Assembly: GCF_007993045.1 (NCBI RefSeq)
Contig: NZ_VOOR01000052.1
Span: 1-33,622, forward strand
DNA: 33,622 nt
DNA from: Phaeodactylibacter luteus
Lineage (GTDB): Bacteria; Bacteroidota; Bacteroidia; Chitinophagales; Saprospiraceae
Direction of reading: 5' to 3'
The translations under genes and the position numbers were made by a program. Position 1 is the first letter of the stretch, and each line of letters opens with the position of its first letter. This document shows positions 1-33,622 of the stretch, piece after piece. A model generated the notes under the pieces. That model made no database searches, was not told the DNA's origin, and saw only the letters and a program-made list of their open reading frames with translations.

Positions 1-1184
1 CCATTGAAGCGCCCTTCGTCTACCAGCCCCCACAGCGCGAACTTGGCTTCCCCTTTCAGATTGATGAGCCCAAAATGGTTCTCCGAGCCTCCAGGGTTGC
101 CGGCATCTTTCCACTGTTCGTCAAATGCCTCAAAGTAAAAACAGGTGATACTGTCCCGGGCAGTCCATTCCCGCATAGCCTGATAATATAGAGCAGACTT
201 GTACTCGTCTGTAGCGCGGGAACCTGCCGCCCCATAATGGCCATTGGACTGCGTGGCCCAGCCGGTCTCCCCTATGTGCACCGGTTTGGAAAGGCCTAGT
301 GCGGCTACATAATCTACTACGCTTCGGTACTGCTCTTGGGCATAGGCCAATGCACGGCCCATGGCAGCATCAATTTGTTGCAGGGTATCTTGAACGGCCG
401 CATCCGGAGGAGCAAGCCAAAACTCGGGGTTGTAATGCGTATCGTGCATGGGGTAAGTGTGCAAAGAGATGAAATCCACAGCAGCAATGAGTTTATCCAA
501 ATCTTCCACGTGGTACTCTTCTCCTCCCCCGCCCCAAGAAGCGAAATTATCAGAACTCGTAATCCAAAGGCTTGCGGGCAGCTCCCCCTTTGCCTTCAGC
601 CCTTGTAAATGATTGACCCACTTGAGGATGACCCCAGGCTGCACATAATAGCTTGCGGCCCATTTGACCATAGCCTCATTGCCCACCGCAATGATCTTGA
701 CAATTTCAGGGTATTCCTGAGCCAAAGCTACCGCCCTGGCCACTTCACCCTCATTCTGCTCGCTCTCCTGATCGTGGTCGGGCGGCAAGCCTGACCACGC
801 ATTCTTGCAGTCGATCCAAGCTCCGAGCATCAGATACATCTCAAAACCAGGCTCTTCGGATTGCAGCTCCCGGATAGCCGCCAACAAGTTGGCGGCTTCA
901 TCAAACTGTACATTATAGGTACGCAGCAGTTTGATGCCCATAGCAGACAGCAGCCTCAGGTCTTCTTTCAATTGGGGTATAGTGGGCTGTATGTCTCGCG
1001 TAGAGGCCCGGTAGCCGCCATAAGAGATGGCCTGGTAATCCGGATTACCTAGTATTTCAGCAGCAGTAAGCCCTTTGGCCAATGGCTTTTCACGGGCCGG
1101 GGCGCAGGAAAACAAAGCCAAAGCAGAGAGCAAGGCTCCTGCCAGCATACGAAGTATCCGGACGGGCTGTAGATATTTTCTCAT
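1..1184 (-). CDS. GH17-like beta-1,3-glucanase lipoprotein (3' end cut by window edge)
   Basis: The reading frame opens at ATG 1184 and stays open to base 1, giving about 394 residues without a stop, so the C-terminus lies outside the window. The N-terminus has a basic start, a hydrophobic core and a lipobox (LALFSC), indicating a lipoprotein. The body is a TIM-barrel glycosidase: VGNEAM places the likely acid/base at Glu170, and HIGETGWAT places the likely nucleophile at Glu306, both typical of GH17 enzymes that cut beta-1,3-glucan. The tail FEAFDEQWK...HFGL is also usual for GH17-like proteins. The ATG lies 3 nt after the stop of the phosphorylase-like gene, so the two are almost certainly co-transcribed. 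Family assignment comes from motif recognition, and exact specificity (hydrolase or transglycosylase, beta-1,3 or beta-1,6) is not shown. Confidence 0.8.
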   Translation of the reverse strand, partial: MRKYLQPVRILRMLAGALLSALALFSCAPAREKPLAKGLTAAEILGNPDYQAISYGGYRASTRDIQPTIPQLKEDLRLLSAMGIKLLRTYNVQFDEAANLLAAIRELQSEEPGFEMYLMLGAWIDCKNAWSGLPPDHDQESEQNEGEVARAVALAQEYPEIVKIIAVGNEAMVKWAASYYVQPGVILKWVNHLQGLKAKGELPASLWITSSDNFASWGGGGEEYHVEDLDKLIAAVDFISLHTYPMHDTHYNPEFWLAPPDAAVQDTLQQIDAAMGRALAYAQEQYRSVVDYVAALGLSKPVHIGETGWATQSNGHYGAAGSRATDEYKSALYYQAMREWTARDSITCFYFEAFDEQWKDAGNPGGSENHFGLINLKGEAKFALWGLVDEGRFN

Positions 1185-5610: not shown

Positions 5611-7464
5611 TTATTTGCGGAAATAGATGTTGTCCAGGAAAATATCCCCGTTCCCATCAAACTTGAGCTGAATCAGGTTGTCCAGGGCTACAGGGGAGAA
5701 GTCAGATAACGGGATGTCTACACTGCCCCAACCGGAAGTTGGCACCGTAAGGGAAACGGGAGTCTCCACCGGGCCTGGGCTGATCAGGAAAACATTGAGC
5801 TGTGCCGAATTGTCAGTCCAATAATCAATGTGCAAGAAAGCCATATCAGATACGTCTTGTGCCTCAGCCAGCTGTATGCCCTGATAGTTCAGCCCTGTGT
5901 ACTTTAAAGTATTGTTGCCGTCTATGGCCACTTCGCTCACGACCGTAGCCTGCCCCCAATTGGGGAAAAAGTCTGTGCCCTCTAAGGAAGGATAGGCCTC
6001 ACTGAAGATAGAAAGGACATCATCGGAAGGATGAGTAGGCGTTGGCGCTGCCGTGGCCGGCATGGTAGGCGGCGTGCTATCGTCATAAAAGAAGATATTG
6101 TCGGCATAAAACCCTGGGATGTTGCCATTGACATCCACAAAGATGACCTGCGCCAGCTCTGCCCGGCTGCCAAGCCCAGCAAAGTTGGACAAAGGCACAT
6201 CAAGGCTGATCCACTGCTGTGCTTGTGAAGCCGGGATATCCGTAGCAAAAACGCCAGTGCCCCCGCTCCCGAAGTCTACTACTTCCAATTGCATGCGCGC
6301 TGTGCCAGCAAGTGGGTTGGGCAGGTAAATATCGATATGCAAGTGGGTCATTGCCGTAGCATCAATTGTGGGAGAGGTGAACTGTATGCCCACAAAGTTG
6401 AAATCGGTATAATTCAGCACCCGGTCTCCATTAACCTCAAAATCAGCAGACAACGTGGTCTGGAAAGGCTCCCAGAAGCCATTGTAATAATCTACAGGCT
6501 CGTTCATGTAGGCCTCGCTGAACAGAGAGATCACATTGTCCTGTGGAATCACGGGTGTAGGGGCATTCACAAAATCGCCAACCGACTCAATGGTAAGGGA
6601 GCCCTCTGCTGCCACACCCCCTACAGTAGCCGTGATCTCTGCAGTGCCAGGGCCGCCTACTACCGTCACTACCCCACTGCCATCTACCACAGCGATAGAC
6701 TCGTCGGAGGAAGCAAACTCAAAGTATGCTGGCGTAACACCTACCGTACGGTTGACCCCCGTGGGCAAGTTGAAAGTAGAAGACAGGCCTTCTATCCTTT
6801 TGGAAACCCCCACAAATGAGGTTTCTACCTGATCTTCCCCGTTCAGCATGCTGTGCTTGGGGTGGGCCAGTGTGCCCAGTTTTTCGAACTTGAGCTCGTC
6901 TACCCAAAAGGTATAGCCTCTGCCGTCTTCCGGGCCTTCAGAATAGTAGAACAGGCCCTTTTCAGCCGTCAGCCTTGAAGGGTCAGGCAGGGGGATGATG
7001 TATTTCTGCCAATTGGTCGTAATGGCTAAGCCACTGACAGACGCCTGATGCCGGGCTTCGCCCAAATCATTGCCGAAGCCTACCACATCAATATTGGCAG
7101 CTTTAGAAGCCTTGGCCCAGAAGGTCAGGGCATCATATTCTGTCAGGTCCCTGCCAACTGTCGTAAAAAAGGCGCCTCCTGCATAAGCTCCCCGGGGGTC
7201 GCCTGCGTCGGGCACTTCAAAGCGCATAGAGGTTTCCGAGGTATTCAGGTAGGTCACCTCATTGTCTACATCGAATGCCGTAGGCACCGACCCACCAAAG
7301 GCAGCGTATTCCAAACCTCCGCTGAAACCGTCAATAAAAACGTTAGGGTTAGAAGGGTATTCAGCAGGCTGAAGGTCATCCAACTCCCGCTCACAACTGA
7401 AAGCCAGAACCATAGCAACGCTCAGTGGGAGTATTTTTGCAAACCGGTTGTTCATTATCTTCAT
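5611..7464 (-). CDS. Surface glycan-binding lipoprotein with Ig-like and repeated CBM-like domains
   Basis: This 617-aa lipoprotein starts at ATG 7464, 13 nt after the upstream stop; the lipobox AFSC follows a short hydrophobic stretch. Residues about 30-190 form a beta-sandwich resembling carbohydrate-binding modules (FWAKASKAANIDVVG, TTNWQKYIIPLPD, WVDELKFEKLG). A BIG2-like Ig domain follows (ESIAVVDGSGVVTVVGGPG). The C-terminal half has two related modules, opening with SLFSEAYMNEP and SIFSEAYPSLE; both continue with LNYTDFNFVGIQF or LKYTGLNYQGIQL, then HLHIDIY or FLHIDYW, and end with ADNIFFY or LDNIYFR. No catalytic motif is visible. Position before GH16 suggests it tethers beta-1,3-glucan at the surface, the role filled by SusE/F or SGBP proteins in other polysaccharide utilization loci. 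Ligand is inferred from neighbours. Confidence 0.78.
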   Translation of the reverse strand: MKIMNNRFAKILPLSVAMVLAFSCERELDDLQPAEYPSNPNVFIDGFSGGLEYAAFGGSVPTAFDVDNEVTYLNTSETSMRFEVPDAGDPRGAYAGGAFFTTVGRDLTEYDALTFWAKASKAANIDVVGFGNDLGEARHQASVSGLAITTNWQKYIIPLPDPSRLTAEKGLFYYSEGPEDGRGYTFWVDELKFEKLGTLAHPKHSMLNGEDQVETSFVGVSKRIEGLSSTFNLPTGVNRTVGVTPAYFEFASSDESIAVVDGSGVVTVVGGPGTAEITATVGGVAAEGSLTIESVGDFVNAPTPVIPQDNVISLFSEAYMNEPVDYYNGFWEPFQTTLSADFEVNGDRVLNYTDFNFVGIQFTSPTIDATAMTHLHIDIYLPNPLAGTARMQLEVVDFGSGGTGVFATDIPASQAQQWISLDVPLSNFAGLGSRAELAQVIFVDVNGNIPGFYADNIFFYDDSTPPTMPATAAPTPTHPSDDVLSIFSEAYPSLEGTDFFPNWGQATVVSEVAIDGNNTLKYTGLNYQGIQLAEAQDVSDMAFLHIDYWTDNSAQLNVFLISPGPVETPVSLTVPTSGWGSVDIPLSDFSPVALDNLIQLKFDGNGDIFLDNIYFRK

Positions 7465-26863: not shown

Positions 26864-28111
26864 TTAACCTTCGAATTCCAATATGGTCTGCTCGATGATG
26901 CCGCAGCAATCGTTCAGCTGAGCTTCCGTCATCACAAGGGGCGGCGCAAAACGGATGATATTGCCATGCGTAGGCTTAGCCAACAGCCCGTTCTCTGCCA
27001 GTTTCAAGCAAATATCCCAGGCTGTCCGGCTGTCTTCCTCCTCGTTGATGACAATAGCGTTCAGCAGCCCTTTGCCGCGCACGAGCGTCACCAGCTCTGT
27101 TTTCTCTACCAAGTTCTTCTGCATCCGGGCCCGGAAAATCTGCCCCAAGCGCTCCGCATTCTCTGCCAGCCGTTCTTCCCTGACCACATTGAGGGCAGCC
27201 ATGGCCACCGCACAGGCCAGGGGGTTGCCGCCAAAAGTGGAGCCGTGCTCACCGGGCTTTATGGTCAGCATGACCTCGTGGCTCGTCAGCACTGCCGACA
27301 CGGGGAACACCCCGCCCGAGAGCGCTTTGCCCAATATTAGGATATCCGGCTTGAAGCCTTCGTGCTCGCAAGCGGTCAGGCGGCCGGTACGGGCGATGCC
27401 GGTCTGCACTTCGTCGGCAATAAAAAGCACATTGTGCGCCTTGCACAGCTCATAAGCTTTGCGCAAGTAGCCTTCATCCGGCACCACTACCCCGGCTTCC
27501 CCTTGTATAGGCTCCACCATGAAGCCCGCTACGTTCTCGTCTTGCAAAGCCGTTTCCAACGCACCGAGGTCGTTGTAAGGGATGATTTCGTAGCCCGGCA
27601 TGAAGGGCCCAAAATTGGACGTGCTGCTAGGGTCTGTGGAAGAAGAAATAGCGCCCAGGGTGCGCCCCCAGAAGTTGCCGGTGACAAAAAGGATTTTAGC
27701 CTGATTGGCGGGCACGCCTTTCACTTCATAAGCCCACTTCCGGCATAGTTTGACGGCAGTCTCTCCGCCTTCTACGCCTGTGTTCATCGGCAGGACACGG
27801 TCGTAGCCAAAAAACTCCGTGATGAACTTCTCGTAAGGCCCGAGCATGTTGTTGTAAAAAGCACGGGAAGTCAGGGTGAGCTTGTGCGCCTGCTCCCCTA
27901 GGGCCGCAATGATATCGGGGTGGCAATGCCCCTGATTGACGGCAGAGTAGGCCGCCAGGAAGTCGTAGTATTTCTTGCCTTCGACATCCCACAAGAACAC
28001 ACCTTCCCCTCTGGCCAGCACCACGGGCAGTGGGTGATAGTTGTGCGCCCCGTACTGATCTTCCATTTCAATGTATGCTTCCGCAGATTGTAGCGTTTCC
28101 TGCTGTACCAT
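26864..28111 (-). CDS. rocD: Ornithine--oxo-acid aminotransferase
   Basis: This 415-aa PLP enzyme moves the delta-amino group of ornithine to 2-oxoglutarate, giving glutamate-5-semialdehyde, and so links arginine/ornithine breakdown with proline and glutamate. The start is ATG 28111. Class-III aminotransferase features are clear: [20 protein letters not shown] near the N-terminus, the phosphate-binding [31 protein letters not shown] with the PLP-ring aspartate, [18 protein letters not shown] with the Schiff-base Lys262, and [17 protein letters not shown]. NHxPLPVV and the [10 protein letters not shown] variant are characteristic of ornithine rather than GABA or acetylornithine transaminases. 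It is the last gene of the operon, 90 nt after pncA, and is followed by a terminator. Confidence 0.93.
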
Positions 28112-28201
28112 GCGTCTGATTTTTTCGTGTTAAAAATGGTTAGGGTGTAATTAAACTCTTTATTTCACAAAATCAAAAATCTCTGTCGTCGAACGGGCGC
28201 C

Positions 28202-28822
28202 TCAAGCGGGCAGCAACTCGGCAGACTGTACAACAACAGCGCCTTTTGCTTTCATTTCCCGGACAGCCGCATCGGAGTCCCCGGGCTTCAGGTTGACGCC
28301 CCGGCAGCCGTCTTCTACCAAATAGGTGGCAAAGCCCAGCTCGAGGGCATCTAAAACCGTAAACTTGACACAAACGTCCAAGGCCAGCCCCAGGACGTAG
28401 ACTTCGTCCACTCCTTTTTCCCGGAGGTACTCCCCTAGCCCAGTCGCTTTGCGATGCCCGTTGTCAAAAAAGCCGCTGTAGCTGTCAATCTCGGGGTCTG
28501 TCCCTTTCACAAAGACCCGGTCGATAGCAGCGGTGTTCAGCTCGGGCACAAACTCTGCCCCAAAGCTGCCTTGTACACAGTGGATAGGCCAAAGGATCTG
28601 CTGCAGCCCATTAAGGTCTATGACCTGGCCCGGGTAGCGCCAAGGGTGCATAGCGGCGAAGCTTTTGTGGTTGGCCGGGTGCCAGTCTTGGGTGGCCACG
28701 GCCAATTCAAAATGTGGGATGAGGGCGTTGGCCACCGCAACCGTCTGATCGCCTTCCGCCACTTCGAGGGCTCCGCCTGGGCAAAAGTCGTTCTGTATAT
28801 CGACTATCAGTAATGCTTTCAT
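28202..28822 (-). CDS. pncA: Nicotinamidase (bifunctional nicotinamidase/pyrazinamidase type)
   Basis: This 206-aa cysteine hydrolase deamidates nicotinamide to nicotinate in the NAD salvage pathway. The catalytic triad is visible as Asp8 in IVDIQNDFCPGGALEV, Lys106 in VFVKGTDPEIDSYSGFFDN and Cys151 in LGLALDVCVKFTVLDAL. The metal site is Asp46, His48 and His52 in TQDWHPANHKSF. PIHCVQGSFGAEF is the usual WPxHCVxGTxGAE segment, with serine in place of threonine. Length and start (ATG 28822) match E. coli PncA. It follows the DUF389 gene by 24 nt and probably shares its transcript. Confidence 0.94.
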   Translation of the reverse strand: MKALLIVDIQNDFCPGGALEVAEGDQTVAVANALIPHFELAVATQDWHPANHKSFAAMHPWRYPGQVIDLNGLQQILWPIHCVQGSFGAEFVPELNTAAIDRVFVKGTDPEIDSYSGFFDNGHRKATGLGEYLREKGVDEVYVLGLALDVCVKFTVLDALELGFATYLVEDGCRGVNLKPGDSDAAVREMKAKGAVVVQSAELLPA

Positions 28823-28846
28823 AACTTCATTCTGCTTTCGCGCAAA

Positions 28847-30313
28847 TCAGTAACTGATGACTTGCAGGGTATCAAATTCGGTACTTACCTTGAGAATGCC
28901 TTCGAGGCGCTCTTTGTTTGCCTTCGTCCCTTTGCGGTTTTTCCATTCTACCAAGTACACATGCTGATTGTTGAGGGTGGCGCTGTCCCCCAGCACCTTG
29001 GTCCGCTCGGCATACTGTATGCCCCCGATCTCGTCCGGGAAGGCTTCCCGGGCCAGACGGAGGCTCTTTTCCACCAGAGCTGAATCGCTCCGGCTCCGGG
29101 CCAGCTGCAGCTTGAGCTCCTCGGCCTGAAGCATGGCATCTGTCGCAGCCCTACGTTCTGACTCGATCATTTTCACCACTTCCTGCCGTTGGGCCTGAAG
29201 AGAGGACTTGACGTCGTTCAGGCTCATTTCGGCTTGGACCGGGAAAAGCCGGACGGGCTTGTGCAGGTCGAAATCCTCTTCCAGTATCTGCTCGTAGTGG
29301 GCGATAGAGTCTTCCGGTATCCGGCGCCCCAACAGCTGCAGAATGAGCTTGTTGGTGTCCGGGTCTATCCCTGTCAGCTCATAATTGATACAGACCTCCG
29401 GGAAATATTCGTCCACAAAACGGGTCACCTCCTGCTTGTCCTGCTGCATTTGGTACAGCCGGTAAAGGATGAACGCACTTGGCAGAGACACCAACATGCT
29501 GAAGAAAGCAGTGATCATCCGGTTGCGGTACGCCTCGCGCGCATCTACATAAGACTTGAGCGGGAAGCGAAGAAAGCGGATGATGAGGTAGGTGGTCAGG
29601 GCGATAAAAAAAGAGTTGAGGAAAAAAAGGTAGAAAGAGCCGAAGATAATGCCGGCCGTCCGGCTCAGCTCCTGCGCATAAAGCCCGCTGCTCATCCCTC
29701 CTTTCCGGATCAGCAGCTCAAACAGCTCGGCTATGCCAAAGCCGGTCACGCAAAGCGGGGGCATCAAAGCGGTGGCTATGGCAACGCCCGGAATGGCGTT
29801 CGATTTGTCTTTGCGGGTAGCAGAGATGATGCCGGCCAGCCCCCCAAAAATCGCGACCAGGCCATCGAGGAAGGTTGGGCTCGTCCGCCCCTGTATCTCA
29901 GGCGTCACATTGCCGAAAGGCGTCACAAAAAAATAGAAGGTACTGGTGACCAGGGCAATGAGTATGGCCACGCCAAAGTGCCGCAGCGAATTGAACATGG
30001 TGTACTGATCGTTGATGGCCACCCCCAGCCCGATGCCCAAGATTGGGGACATCAGCGGGGAGACCAACATCGCGCCGATGATCACGGCCGGGGAGTTGAG
30101 GTCGAGCCCTAAGGACGCGATCATAATGGAACACCCCAGCAGCCAGGCATTGGCGCCTTGCATCTTGCGGTTGTTGCGGATGGAAATCACGGCCCCTTCC
30201 CGGTCGAGCCCTTCTTCCAGGTCGAAAAGCGTGTGGAACCAGCTTTTTATCAACCCAAACAGCTCCATGATCAATGCTCTGGGCGAGCGGGCAGGCATAT
30301 TGGTTTGGCTCAT
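28847..30313 (-). CDS. DUF389 membrane protein with C-terminal coiled coil
   Basis: This 488-aa integral membrane protein starts at ATG 30313, 27 nt after the LolD-like gene's stop. The DUF389 core lies at about residues 50-275: ANAWLLGCSIMIASLGLDLN, SPAVIIGAMLVSPLMSPILG, IGLGVAINDQ, FLDGLVAIFGGLAGIISATR and GVAIATALMPPLCVTGFGIA, giving about six membrane helices with the conserved glycine/proline-rich segments of the family. The remaining 190 residues are soluble and include a charged helical region (about 370-425, VKSSLQAQRQEVVKMIESER and following) likely to form a coiled coil. Family members have no settled biochemical function; a transporter-like role has been suggested from the fold. 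Nothing in the neighbours fixes it. Confidence 0.88.
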   Translation of the reverse strand: MSQTNMPARSPRALIMELFGLIKSWFHTLFDLEEGLDREGAVISIRNNRKMQGANAWLLGCSIMIASLGLDLNSPAVIIGAMLVSPLMSPILGIGLGVAINDQYTMFNSLRHFGVAILIALVTSTFYFFVTPFGNVTPEIQGRTSPTFLDGLVAIFGGLAGIISATRKDKSNAIPGVAIATALMPPLCVTGFGIAELFELLIRKGGMSSGLYAQELSRTAGIIFGSFYLFFLNSFFIALTTYLIIRFLRFPLKSYVDAREAYRNRMITAFFSMLVSLPSAFILYRLYQMQQDKQEVTRFVDEYFPEVCINYELTGIDPDTNKLILQLLGRRIPEDSIAHYEQILEEDFDLHKPVRLFPVQAEMSLNDVKSSLQAQRQEVVKMIESERRAATDAMLQAEELKLQLARSRSDSALVEKSLRLAREAFPDEIGGIQYAERTKVLGDSATLNNQHVYLVEWKNRKGTKANKERLEGILKVSTEFDTLQVISY

Positions 30314-30340
30314 AGGTTGGTCATTTTAGGAGTCAATGGC

Positions 30341-30991
30341 TTAAGCCAGCAAACCGTCCTTCATCTCCAGCCGGCGGTCGCTCATAGCAGCCAGCTCTTC
30401 GTTGTGGGTGACTATGACAAAGGTCTGACCCATATCGTCCCGCAGCTGGAACAACAGCTGATGCAGCTCTTGGGAAGATGCAGAATCGAGGTTGCCGCTG
30501 GGCTCGTCCGCAAATACCACCGCCGGGCTGTTCATCAGGGCGCGGGCCACGGCCACCCGCTGCTGCTCGCCCCCGGAGAGCTGCCCCGGCTTGTGCTCAA
30601 GGCGCCCGCCCAGCCCAAGGTAATCCAACAGCTCAGCCGCACGCTTGCGCGCAGCCTTCTCTTCGGTCTTGGCGATCAGCGCAGGGATAAGCACATTCTC
30701 ACGGGCAGTGAACTCCGGCAGCAGATGATGGAACTGAAAAACGAAGCCAATCCTCGCATTGCGGAACGCGGCCAGCTTTCGGGTATTCAGCCCAAAGACA
30801 TCCTCCCCGCCAATAGACAAGGTGCCACTATCTGGCCGGTCGAGGGTGCCGAGGATGTGCAGTAGCGTGCTCTTGCCGGCACCTGATTTCCCCACCACAG
30901 AGACGAACTCCCCGGCCCTGATGGCCAGGTCCACCCCTTTCAACACCTGAAGCTGCCCGTAGGCTTTCGCTATCCCTTTTGCCTGAATCAC
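30341..30991 (-). CDS. lolD: LolD/MacB-type ABC transporter ATP-binding protein
   Basis: This is a 216-aa ATPase. A GTG start at 30991 gives [20 protein letters not shown], which aligns with the usual MI.A..I.K.YG opening; frames extending further upstream depend on a TTG and add unlikely residues that overlap the promoter. Walker A is GKSGAGKST (34-42), the Q-loop is Gln86, the signature [15 protein letters not shown] begins at 138, Walker B is AVVFADEP (157-164) and the H-loop is His196. [20 protein letters not shown] is characteristic of the LolD branch, which with LolC/E releases lipoproteins from the inner membrane. The permease is not adjacent here, so the exact system is uncertain and MacB- or FtsE-like partners are possible. 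It is the first gene of the lolD-DUF389-pncA-rocD run. Confidence 0.85.
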
Positions 30992-31013
30992 AATTGCTGT
31001 TTTTTGTCGTGGG

Positions 31014-31043
31014 TAAAAATAGGAAAAACCACAGGCTGACAAA
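31014..31043 (-). promoter_or_regulatory. Promoter of the lolD operon
   Basis: On the minus strand TTTG (31040-31043), an 18-nt spacer and TATTTTTA (31014-31021) match TTTG-N17-23-TAnnTTTG with one mismatch. The -7 box is 22 nt before the GTG start, which also supports the shorter protein. Confidence 0.45.
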
Positions 31044-31105
31044 GCAATCGGCAAGCTTAGTTATCTTGAAATGCTGAGCCCCCCCAAACAGGCCACCGTT
31101 TTTAT

Positions 31106-31200
31106 GGGGCTCCCCCAGCCTGACGGCAGGGGGCGCTATGCTACGGGGCTCGCTCCTCGCTCGGCCCTACCGGGCTTTCCACCCCTCCGCAGCGCTAGCC
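31106..31200 (+). repeat. GC-rich dispersed intergenic repeat, copy C
   Basis: It aligns with copies A and B. Its first hairpin differs (CCCCCAGCC-TGAC-GGCAGGGGG, one A-A mismatch), yet pairing is kept, and the second is GCCC-TACC-GGGC. It lies between the lolD promoter and the CRISPR leader. Confidence 0.85.
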
Positions 31201-31206
31201 CTCTCC

Positions 31207-31450
31207 GCAGTGCAACGGCTGAGCGGAAGGCAGCAGCAAGAATTTCAGCAAAATCCCCCCAAAAGGGAACAATCAGCGGAAAAAAGCTGTATATTGCTTC
31301 AGTACCGATGAGGGCAAACGGCCCTTGTTTGGCTTATTTTTTAGTATTTTGCACAGCAGGTTTTGCAGAAAAAACCCTTGTTAAAAAGTGTTAAAATTCT
31401 CCGTTCTTTGACATCAACTTGCTCATTTTCAGTAAATTGCAAAACATGCT
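31207..31450 (+). promoter_or_regulatory. CRISPR leader with probable promoter
   Basis: An AT-rich, non-coding stretch of about 240 bp directly before the first repeat. TTTG (31407-31410), a 22-nt spacer and TAAATTGC (31433-31440) resemble the Bacteroidota promoter, with the start of transcription expected just before the first repeat at 31451. The leader side is set by the intact first repeat here and the decayed last repeat at 33558. Confidence 0.6.
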
Positions 31451-32070
31451 ATCAGAGTCCCTATCCAGTCCAGAGTAGGATTAAGACATGCCATAGACAA
31501 GATCTTCAGCGTACTTACGAGCATCAGAGTCCCTATCCAGTCCAGAGTAGGATTAAGACTTCTCAAAATTAGGGCTTTTGATAATAAAAAGCATCATCAG
31601 AGTCCCTATCCAGTCCAGAGTAGGATTAAGACTTCACATCATCTATATCAAGCGAAGCTCTTGATGAGGATCAGAGTCCCTATCCAGTCCAGAGTAGGAT
31701 TAAGACTGACTAACCTAGCTACTCGGAGCGATAGCAGGAACTTATCAGAGTCCCTATCCAGTCCAGAGTAGGATTAAGACTTCGCTCTCGCCAGCGACAG
31801 CGGCTTGAACGTTAAATCAGAGTCCCTATCCAGTCCAGAGTAGGATTAAGACAGGCAGCACACCGACTGTGGTGTAAATTGTGCAGATCAGAGTCCCTAT
31901 CCAGTCCAGAGTAGGATTAAGACCAGCGCAGCAGCTAGATTTCCTCCTCGACTAGAAGATCAGAGTCCCTATCCAGTCCAGAGTAGGATTAAGACAGCCA
32001 TTTCTTGTATATGGCAAACTGGTATGCCACATAATCAGAGTCCCTATCCAGTCCAGAGTAGGATTAAGAC

Positions 32071-32094
32071 GGTCTTCCCGCATCCGGGAGGACC
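32071..32094 (+). other. Spacer 9 hairpin
   Basis: Spacer 9 (32071-32105) opens with GGTCTTCCCG-CATC-CGGGAGGACC: a 10-bp stem with one T-G pair and a 4-nt loop, starting at the first spacer base. Confidence 0.85.
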
Positions 32095-32142
32095 AAATAG
32101 TATGTATCAGAGTCCCTATCCAGTCCAGAGTAGGATTAAGAC

Positions 32143-32173
32143 ATGGGAGGTGTGACGGTTATACACCTCCCAT
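32143..32173 (+). other. Spacer 10 hairpin
   Basis: Spacer 10 (32143-32178) opens with a perfect 11-bp inverted repeat, ATGGGAGGTGT and ACACCTCCCAT, around a 9-nt loop, starting at the first spacer base. Confidence 0.9.
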
Positions 32174-33448
32174 CCATTATCAGAGTCCCTATCCAGTCCA
32201 GAGTAGGATTAAGACGATTGCATTTTTCACTGTAACAGAGCTGAGATTGTTGGTATCAGAGTCCCTATCCAGTCCAGAGTAGGATTAAGACTGATTTTTG
32301 TTGTTTTGATAATACATATATACATATATCAGAGTCCCTATCCAGTCCAGAGTAGGATTAAGACGGGTCTTCTGAAATTGTTGCTCTTCGCTCAGAGAGA
32401 TCAGAGTCCCTATCCAGTCCAGAGTAGGATTAAGACAAGGGCGCTGGTATTTTACAGAAGGGGATTACTCAATCAGAGTCCCTATCCAGTCCAGAGTAGG
32501 ATTAAGACGTTTTTCATGTGGGTATTTCATCGCGCATTTTAAATTATCAGAGTCCCTATCCAGTCCAGAGTAGGATTAAGACCTGTCTCATACCCTCTAA
32601 CTCATCACTAGCATCAATCAGAGTCCCTATCCAGTCCAGAGTAGGATTAAGACCTTGCCGAATGACTTGTAACGCTTTTCTAGGTTCATCAGAGTCCCTA
32701 TCCAGTCCAGAGTAGGATTAAGACTTGTTCTTGATATATGTACAGTCCAAAAGTCGATTCATCAGAGTCCCTATCCAGTCCAGAGTAGGATTAAGACGTA
32801 ACAACGTATATTGTTTTGTGTTTTGATAATAATCAGAGTCCCTATCCAGTCCAGAGTAGGATTAAGACTATAGACTAATAAAACTTCTCAAACTTCAGAG
32901 CTAAATCAGAGTCCCTATCCAGTCCAGAGTAGGATTAAGACAGAGCTTCTTTGTAAAGAAAGTTTACTTTTCTTTCCATCAGAGTCCCTATCCAGTCCAG
33001 AGTAGGATTAAGACGAACTCACTTCTCCGTAGAAAAGAGCTGATAGTTTGTATCAGAGTCCCTATCCAGTCCAGAGTAGGATTAAGACATGTAGGGTTCG
33101 ATTTTAAAAACCCGTCCGAGAATAAATCAGAGTCCCTATCCAGTCCAGAGTAGGATTAAGACTTTTTCACATTAAAAGACCAAATCAAACTTATCATATC
33201 AGAGTCCCTATCCAGTCCAGAGTAGGATTAAGACCCCTCCCCTGCTGGGTTGTCAAACCAAGCAAAAAGATCAGAGTCCCTATCCAGTCCAGAGTAGGAT
33301 TAAGACCATCACAAAGGCTCGTAGTCTTTATCTTCGTCGCATCAGAGTCCCTATCCAGTCCAGAGTAGGATTAAGACTCGCTTATGTTAGTGTAAAGCAC
33401 GCTAGACACCAATCAGAGTCCCTATCCAGTCCAGAGTAGGATTAAGAC

Positions 33449-33474
33449 TCCCCGTTCTCTTCCTGGAACTGGGA
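33449..33474 (+). other. Spacer 28 hairpin
   Basis: Spacer 28 (33449-33484) pairs TCCCCGTTCT with GGAACTGGGA: nine pairs including one T-G, with one C-T mismatch and a 6-nt loop, starting at the first spacer base. Confidence 0.75.
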
Positions 33475-33527
33475 GATTGCCTTGATCAGAGTCCCTATCC
33501 AGTCCAGAGTAGGATTAAGACGTGATT

Positions 33528-33549
33528 TCTGTCAGGTTATCCTGACGGA
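33528..33549 (+). other. Spacer 29 hairpin
   Basis: Spacer 29 (33522-33557) contains TCTGTCAGG-TTAT-CCTGACGGA, a 9-bp stem with one T-G pair and a 4-nt loop. Confidence 0.85.
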
Positions 33550-33622
33550 TGCCATTTATCAGAGTCCCTATCCAGTCCAGAGTAGGATTTCCCGCTCAAG
33601 TGACACTAAGGCTCCTCCGTCG

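What the first reader, a model, noticed from the sequence alone, without database searches (positions are those of the whole stretch)
31488..33557. CRISPR spacers that are themselves strong hairpins
Four of 29 spacers fold on themselves with 9-11 paired bases: spacer 9 (10 bp, one wobble), spacer 10 (11 bp perfect), spacer 28 (nine pairs, one mismatch) and spacer 29 (9 bp, one wobble). Spacers 2, 3 and 26 have 6-7 bp stems, nearer to chance. My rough count for a random 36-mer with 3-10-nt loops (about 150 placements) expects a perfect 6-bp stem in about 4% of spacers and an 11-bp stem in a few per 100,000. In spacers 9, 10 and 28 the stem starts at the first spacer base, and strong cases sit next to each other (9/10, 28/29). 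This suggests capture biased toward structured templates such as terminators or structured RNA, as might arise with a reverse-transcriptase-linked Cas1, or from hairpin-rich mobile DNA. A hairpin guide would also be expected to hinder targeting.
Basis: partly seen in the sequence, partly recalled or inferred. Interest (0 to 1): 0.75.

Follow-up and report, generated by a model that had tools for sequence, protein, structure and literature searches.

The report
Hairpin spacers in type III CRISPR
A bacterial immune memory bank holds a few stored snippets that fold into hairpins, and comparison with relatives suggests that this kind of system, which carries its own DNA-copying enzyme, picks up hairpin-shaped DNA more often than ordinary CRISPR systems do.

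Summary
The array is real (29 spacers, 37-nt repeat). Spacers 9, 10 and 29 are strong folding outliers; 28 is marginal, the other 25 are at chance, and adjacency is not significant. Repeat, leader and trailer match two arrays on contig C35 that flank a III-B Cmr operon with cas1, cas2 and a CAPP_B-type primase-polymerase. No RVT_1 match exists in the genome, so RT capture is not supported. Spacer 9 is antisense to P-loop codons. The pattern generalises: in 57 other CAPP loci, perfect stems of 9 bp or more occur in 25 of 1654 spacers (1.9 expected), against 1 of 1641 in type I and II arrays (locus permutation p 2.5e-4). Hairpin sites were often captured more than once in one array. Best reading: these type III systems preferentially acquire hairpin-forming DNA, as reported for laboratory III-A adaptation (PMC9048733). 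That CAPP, rather than type III in general, is responsible is not shown; RT-linked arrays are intermediate. No source element was found.

The parts
31231..31450 (+). leader of the array; its last 120 bases match the leaders of the two C35 arrays in 113 and 91 of 121 alignment columns
31451..33589 (+). CRISPR array: 29 identical 37-nt repeats, 29 spacers of 34-39 nt, truncated last repeat from 33558
   Evidence: same repeat on contig C35
32071..32105 (+). spacer 9: 10-pair stem (one wobble), z -5.2; minus strand 32103-32071 reads ILFGPPGCGKT (P-loop codons)
32143..32178 (+). spacer 10: 11-bp perfect inverted repeat starting at base 1, z -3.7; no match in phages or plasmids, and none elsewhere in the genome
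33449..33484 (+). spacer 28: weak hairpin, z -2.0, p .038, not significant after 29 tests
33522..33557 (+). spacer 29: 9-pair stem (one wobble), z -4.2; no other copy in the genome
33558..33622 (+). truncated last repeat and trailer, shared with both C35 arrays; on C35 the trailer continues as an inverted repeat, here the contig ends

Best explanation
The window carries an array of a type III-B (Cmr) system whose cas2-CAPP-cas1 genes lie on another contig (shown). Arrays linked to CAPP hold DNA that forms hairpins (inverted repeats) far more often than chance and more often than type I and II arrays (shown statistically). In 10 of 16 clusters of overlapping spacers the same complete hairpin recurs with different borders, so there it was already in the source DNA and was captured repeatedly (shown). 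Inferred: single-stranded DNA of invaders folds, and the short duplex is a good prespacer for Cas1-Cas2, with CAPP priming or extending it into double-stranded DNA. No RNA or reverse-transcription step is needed. In the window, spacers 10 and 29 and possibly 9 are products of this bias; 28 and the rest are ordinary.
For: Shared repeat, leader and trailer with C35 arrays beside Cmr1, 3, 4, 5, 6, Cas10, Cas1, PrimPol and Cas2. Perfect stems of 8 bp or more: CAPP loci without this genome 37 of 1654 (6.5 expected by shuffling), type I 3 of 1004 (2.3), type II 2 of 637 (0.9), chromosomal fragments 10 of 2399 (5.9); of 9 bp or more 25 (1.9), 0, 1 and 6. MFE z below -3: 71 of 1654 against 27 of 1641, Fisher 4.5e-6. 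Holds when labels are permuted over loci (p 2.5e-4 to 5e-4) and when matched by order: 10 of 373 against 5 of 1483. The two larger sets, drawn separately, agree (10 of 373 and 25 of 1125). Hairpins in 16 of 61 multi-spacer clusters against 49 of 1399 single spacers; 10 of the 16 show the same complete hairpin in two spacers. Stems have few G-U pairs (6% for z below -3; like for like at E below -9, 8% against 14% in shuffles), and both strands show the excess (72 and 84 of 1548), as expected for DNA hairpins. Type II control loci carry HNH/RuvC or Cas9 proteins in 16 of 16. Structure preference by an RT-free III-A system is summarised in PMC9048733 (section 11 read).
Against: No protospacer was found for the eight hairpins tested (window spacers 9, 10, 29 and five patterns from relatives), so source hairpins are inferred from overlapping spacers only; 6 of 16 clusters do not show the complete hairpin twice, and two of the ten that do share a stem of only 4-5 bp. 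The third CAPP set alone is not significant (2 of 156, p .08). Against this genome's own I-B array alone, CAPP spacers do not differ in z below -3 (23 of 423 against 4 of 128, Fisher .21), and set 2 against I-B by rank gives .059. RT-linked arrays are intermediate (6 of 546) and differ from CAPP only marginally (locus permutation p .06-.09). Spacer 9 can be explained by P-loop codons alone. The bias touches only about 2-4% of spacers.
Confidence: 0.64

Rival explanations
1. Snap-back synthesis: CAPP extends a folded 3' end of single-stranded DNA, copying one arm, so that the hairpin is made during adaptation and is absent from the invader.
For: CAPPs prime and extend on short ssDNA (PMC8211822 discussion); long perfect stems are the most enriched class (25 against 1.9 expected); a few overlapping pairs diverge just where an arm continues (L054 spacers 19 and 32, L189 spacers 23 and 26).
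Against: In 10 of 16 clusters the same hairpin is complete in two spacers with different borders; wobble pairs occur in spacers 9 and 29; stems are not strongly tied to spacer ends (16 of 37 perfect-stem spacers flush within 1 nt, 12.2 expected).
Confidence: 0.12
2. Structured RNA or terminators captured through reverse transcription.
For: RT-linked loci of the same class show a mild excess (6 of 546 against 2.2 expected); one III-B array with an RT beside cas1 (L253) has 5 of 44 spacers with z below -3.
Against: No RVT_1 match in this genome; Cas1 is unfused and its neighbour is a PrimPol; no strand asymmetry and few T-rich tails; few wobble pairs.
Confidence: 0.04
3. Ordinary spacers: three hairpins among 29 are a reader's selection, and their stems are accidents of coding sequence such as P-loop codons.
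For: Spacer 9 reads as a P-loop; hairpin spacers have as many open frames as other spacers (3.50 against 3.43 of 6); the other 25 window spacers are at chance.
Confidence: 0.13
4. Source bias: elements remembered by these arrays (for example rolling-circle or conjugative elements) are richer in inverted repeats, without any preference by the adaptation machinery.
For: Protospacers are unknown.
Against: Repeated capture of one hairpin within an array (21 of 72 hairpin spacers have an overlapping partner against 93 of 1476 others) points to preference within a source; type I and II arrays of the same order lack the excess.
Confidence: 0.2

Closest known systems
CAPP_B-associated type III CRISPR-Cas systems (Zabrady et al. 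2021, PMC8211822; abstract, sections 6 and 15 and found passages read)
   Same: VirE_N/BT4734-like PrimPol encoded next to cas1 and cas2, in a type III operon of a Bacteroidota genome
   Different: the parts read report biochemistry and gene neighbourhoods; the word 'hairpin' does not occur in its main text and no spacer statistics were seen
Structure-biased adaptation of RT-free type III-A systems (reviewed in PMC9048733; section 11 and found passages read; the primary papers on S. thermophilus and S. epidermidis were not read)
   Same: S. thermophilus III-A favours stem-loop regions, S. epidermidis III-A favours rRNA and tRNA regions, unlike type II in the same hosts; spacers of about 36 bp; no RT encoded by the system
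   Different: those are laboratory acquisitions; here natural arrays of CAPP-linked type III systems in Bacteroidota, with repeated capture of the same hairpin visible in the arrays
RT-Cas1 and RT-linked type III systems
   Same: a replicase linked to the adaptation genes; a mild hairpin excess in RT-linked arrays sampled here
   Different: no RT in this genome; the enzyme here is a primase-polymerase

Membership tests
type III-B (Cmr) CRISPR-Cas | Cas10/Cmr2 with Cmr1, Cmr3, Cmr4, Cmr5 and Cmr6 | tested here: met
   PADLOC profiles on C35
type III-B (Cmr) CRISPR-Cas | the window array uses the same repeat and leader as the arrays beside that operon | tested here: met
CAPP_B | VirE_N/BT4734-like PrimPol in an operon with cas1 and cas2 | tested here: met
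   PF08800 at 1.5e-15; Cas2 1294-1776, PrimPol 1776-2804, Cas1 2801-3781 of L011, all on the minus strand
CAPP_B | no other fused domain | tested here: inconclusive
   besides PF08800 only a sub-threshold TBP-TOTE match at the C-terminus (18.5 bits, cut-off 27)
CAPP_B | DNA-dependent primase and polymerase activity, association with Cas1-Cas2 | not testable with these tools
   needs purified protein
RT-Cas1 / RT-linked adaptation | reverse transcriptase fused to or beside cas1 | tested here: not met
   PF00078 0 of 1 genome; Cas1 326 aa, unfused
structure-biased type III adaptation | new spacers enriched at hairpin-forming DNA | tested here: inconclusive
   spacers of the family's arrays are enriched; acquisition itself was not observed and the source DNA is unknown

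The most novel reading that the evidence does not exclude
The CRISPR-associated primase-polymerase itself sets the preference: DNA hairpins act as built-in primer-templates or duplex handles that CAPP and Cas1-Cas2 turn into prespacers, so CAPP systems are a distinct adaptation route that samples the fold of invader ssDNA, a counterpart to RT-Cas1 sampling RNA, and natural arrays record it as hairpin spacers and repeated capture sites.
Probability: 0.3. Interest if true: 0.8.

Novelty: new variant of a known kind. Interest (0 to 1): 0.6.

Why it matters
Which factor recognises structured prespacers in type III adaptation is listed as open in PMC9048733 (passage), and how CAPPs take part is called under study in PMC8211822. 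A measurable hairpin signature in natural CAPP arrays gives a test: inactivate CAPP and see whether hairpin capture disappears. It would also show that natural arrays, not only laboratory acquisition, keep hairpin spacers although a folded guide might be expected to work poorly.

Tried and rejected
RT-based capture: no RVT_1 match in the genome. Terminators as source: T-rich tails after 5 of 72 stems; Rfam on 28000-33622: 0 families. Self-targeting by spacers 10 and 29: only the array itself matches with up to 3 mismatches. Protospacers: spacer 10 no match in phages or plasmids; spacer 9 five phage records at E 1-4, three of them annotated PhoH-like or polynucleotide kinase (P-loop proteins by recall), one hypothetical, one portal; spacer 29 three weak records. 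Viral contigs: the stem of spacer 10 with a free loop gave 0; that of spacer 9 gave 1, over GPPGTGKT codons (49; letters in 105); that of spacer 29 gave 16, all carrying one similar coding stretch that matches 23-25 of 36 bases, taken as chance; five exact patterns from relatives gave 0. Adjacency: not significant. Edge signature of snap-back: weak.

Labels corrected: the class 'otherIII' was wrong; L101 is a type I locus (63), and L103 and L104 have an RT match (84). In 'III_noCAPP_noRT' was wrong, since its loci have RT matches (84; L253 by profile, 82). One search is the corrected table. What the labels rest on: type II, 16 of 16 loci have an HNH_4, RuvC_III or Cas9 protein (107-109); type I, 13 of 16 have a Cas3, Cas7, TM1802 or Cas6b match (103, 109), while L089 (only a weak Cas10d match), L096 (no match for the one protein tested) and L094 (not tested by profile) rest on Cas1 kinship and repeats; type V rests on its repeat (recall); 'RT-III' means an RT match in the stretch (84), with a type III effector match in 10 of 18 (103), so I call it RT-linked here. 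CAPP relatives: blast with this genome's effectors typed few of them (0 of 11, 2 of 41 and 1 of 5 with a type III match, 103); by profile 12 of 15 checked loci have a Csm3, Csm5, Cas7_IIId or Cas10 protein, two only a CARF-HEPN protein and one none (20 proteins, 110, 111), so relatives look III-A/D-like rather than III-B. No clean sample of type III without CAPP or RT was obtained.

Rows dropped: arrays with too few repeats (below 3-6 by call), irregular spacing or short repeats; spacers outside 28-44 nt (24-44 in controls), with N, or duplicated; 204 spacers of the second set already in the first (53). Of 20 CAPP regions fetched, 11 had usable arrays. The search for related loci kept 80 of 125 relatives (52). 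Five untyped loci are kept apart.

Full report
What is there. The window is a whole contig (C250) of a 6.0-Mb draft of 301 contigs. Its last 2.1 kb is a CRISPR array on the + strand: 29 identical 37-nt repeats, 29 spacers of 34-39 nt and a truncated 30th repeat. The repeat ends in ATTAAGAC and the truncated repeat is on the right, so transcription is taken to run left to right (inference).

The hairpins in the window. With 1000 dinucleotide shuffles per spacer, spacers 9, 10 and 29 are clear outliers (z -5.2, -3.7, -4.2). Spacer 28 is marginal (p .038) and the other 25 have mean z -0.04.

Which system it belongs to. The same repeat occurs in two arrays on contig C35 (the left one with a variant repeat). 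Leaders and trailers of all three are homologous, and the first 26 bases of the trailer occur only at these three places. Between the C35 arrays lies a III-B operon: Cmr1, Cmr4 (twice), Cmr5, Cmr6, Cas10, Cmr3, a CARF-PDDEXK and a CARF-HEPN-Csx20 protein, a helicase, Cas1, a PrimPol and Cas2. The PrimPol has a BT4734-like/VirE_N domain and fits CAPP_B of PMC8211822. The genome has no RVT_1 match. A second system with Cas3 and 128 distinct spacers on C146 served as internal control.

Does it generalise? A search with the CAPP protein found relatives in 25 of 396 genomes of the order, this genome included. Twenty regions were fetched; 11 had arrays, 13 in all, with 373 spacers, besides the 50 spacers of this genome. 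A separate scan of genome contigs gave 1125 further spacers, and a third small set 156. By profile, 12 of 15 relatives checked have a type III Csm3, Csm5, Cas7_IIId or Cas10 protein. Controls are type I and type II arrays from the same order plus three type I loci from the class, RT-linked arrays, and random chromosomal fragments; their labels were checked.

The corrected table is. Perfect Watson-Crick stems of at least 8 bp with loops of 3-12 nt: CAPP without this genome 37 of 1654 (6.5 expected from shuffles), type I 3 of 1004 (2.3), type II 2 of 637 (0.9), RT-linked 6 of 546 (2.2), untyped 0 of 148, type V 0 of 67, chromosomal 10 of 2399 (5.9). Stems of at least 9 bp, in the same order: 25 (1.9 expected), 0, 1, 3, 0, 0 and 6. 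MFE z below -3: 71 of 1654, 17 of 1004, 10 of 637, 13 of 546, 3 of 148, 2 of 67 and 25 of 2399. By set, stems of 8 bp or more are 10 of 373, 25 of 1125 and 2 of 156; the last alone is not significant (p .08). Permuting class labels over loci gives p 2.5e-4 to 5e-4 for CAPP against type I and II, but .06-.09 against RT-linked; 20 of 57 CAPP loci, 5 of 32 type I/II loci and 4 of 18 RT-linked loci have at least one such stem. Type I and II show no clear excess over their own shuffles (5 of 1641, 3.2 expected). Less favourable tests: CAPP against this genome's C146 array alone for z below -3 gives Fisher .21, and set 2 against I-B by rank .059. The window, which suggested the idea, is left out of the tests.

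What the hairpins look like. In the 1548 CAPP spacers of the first two sets with this genome included, 72 have z below -3 (23 of 423, 49 of 1125). Both strands show the excess (72 and 84), 6% of stem pairs are G-U, T-rich tails follow 5 of 72, and stems sit anywhere in the spacer with at most a slight leaning to the ends. They have as many open frames as other spacers. This points to DNA inverted repeats rather than to RNA elements or terminators.

Repeated capture. Within arrays, 21 of 72 hairpin spacers share at least 14 bases with another spacer, against 93 of 1476 others. These counts are not independent, because partners share the hairpin. By clusters it is 16 of 61 multi-spacer clusters against 49 of 1399 single spacers. 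Type I-B arrays also show this on small numbers (4 of 15 against 18 of 675), there partly as near-identical neighbours. In 10 of 16 clusters the complete hairpin recurs in two spacers with different borders, two of them with stems of only 4-5 bp; examples are L219 spacers 22 and 25 in opposite orientation and four overlapping spacers in L152. In these cases the hairpin was in the source and was not made during acquisition.

Spacer 9 in particular. Its minus strand reads ILFGPPGCGKT, a P-loop; the codons for GPP and GKT are nearly complementary. A viral contig carries the same stem over codons that read GPPGTGKT (read by eye). So one of the three window hairpins can be an accident of coding, or was favoured because it folds.

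Mechanism. Shown: the anatomy, the statistical excess, and the presence of the hairpin in the source for 10 of 16 testable clusters. Inferred: single-stranded invader DNA folds; Cas1-Cas2 prefers the duplex; CAPP, which prefers DNA templates in the two enzymes tested (PMC8211822), completes it. The review PMC9048733 (section 11 read; open question seen as a passage) describes structure preference in laboratory III-A adaptation and asks whether Cas1-Cas2 or another factor recognises it. My data cannot separate CAPP from type III in general: all 11 loci with a type III effector match and no CAPP also had an RT match.

What is known in print. Searches of the held library listed no paper that links CAPP to hairpin spacers; subscription papers are mostly not held, and the primary III-A papers were not read.

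Limits. No protospacer was found for the eight hairpins tested.

Noticed in passing
33558-33622; L011 about 120-216 (minus), L012 about 6272-6380: All three arrays of this repeat end in the same truncated repeat followed by the same trailer, which on C35 is an inverted repeat (TCCCGCT..AGTGACACT....AGTGTCACT..AGCGGGA). Its first 26 bases occur nowhere else in the genome, so arrays may be copied as leader-array-trailer units.
   Followed up: partly
window spacer 26 (33307-33340) and C35 left-array spacer 10: The two spacers overlap with one difference (ATCACAAAG[G/A]CTCGTAG), so both arrays remember related elements.
   Followed up: no
L011 1294-12437 (C35): The III-B operon carries two CARF effectors (CARF-PDDEXK and CARF-HEPN fused to Csx20), two Cmr4-like genes, and a RecD/PIF1-like helicase upstream of cas1; a relative of the helicase lies in 12 of the 20 CAPP regions.
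   Followed up: partly
loci: Loci of this class have either a CAPP or a reverse transcriptase near or fused to cas1; none of the 7 CAPP loci screened had an RT match, though one genome (G268) has each at different loci.
   Followed up: partly
CAPP relatives, for example L045, L153, L189, L213: CAPP relatives mostly carry Csm3/Cas7_IIId-type effectors, unlike the III-B Cmr set of this genome, although repeats and the cas1-CAPP module are alike: the adaptation module seems to travel between type III subtypes.
   Followed up: partly
32071-32103 minus strand and L129 5720-5750: P-loop codons (GPP...GKT) are nearly self-complementary, so spacers over Walker A motifs will often fold into hairpins.
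   Followed up: partly
L013 11187-19951 (C146): A long type I array of 133 spacers, 128 distinct, with repeated spacers that suggest an internal duplication.
   Followed up: no
L253 5828-8896: A III-B array with a stand-alone RT beside cas1 has 5 of 44 spacers with z below -3, the highest rate among the RT-linked arrays sampled.
   Followed up: partly
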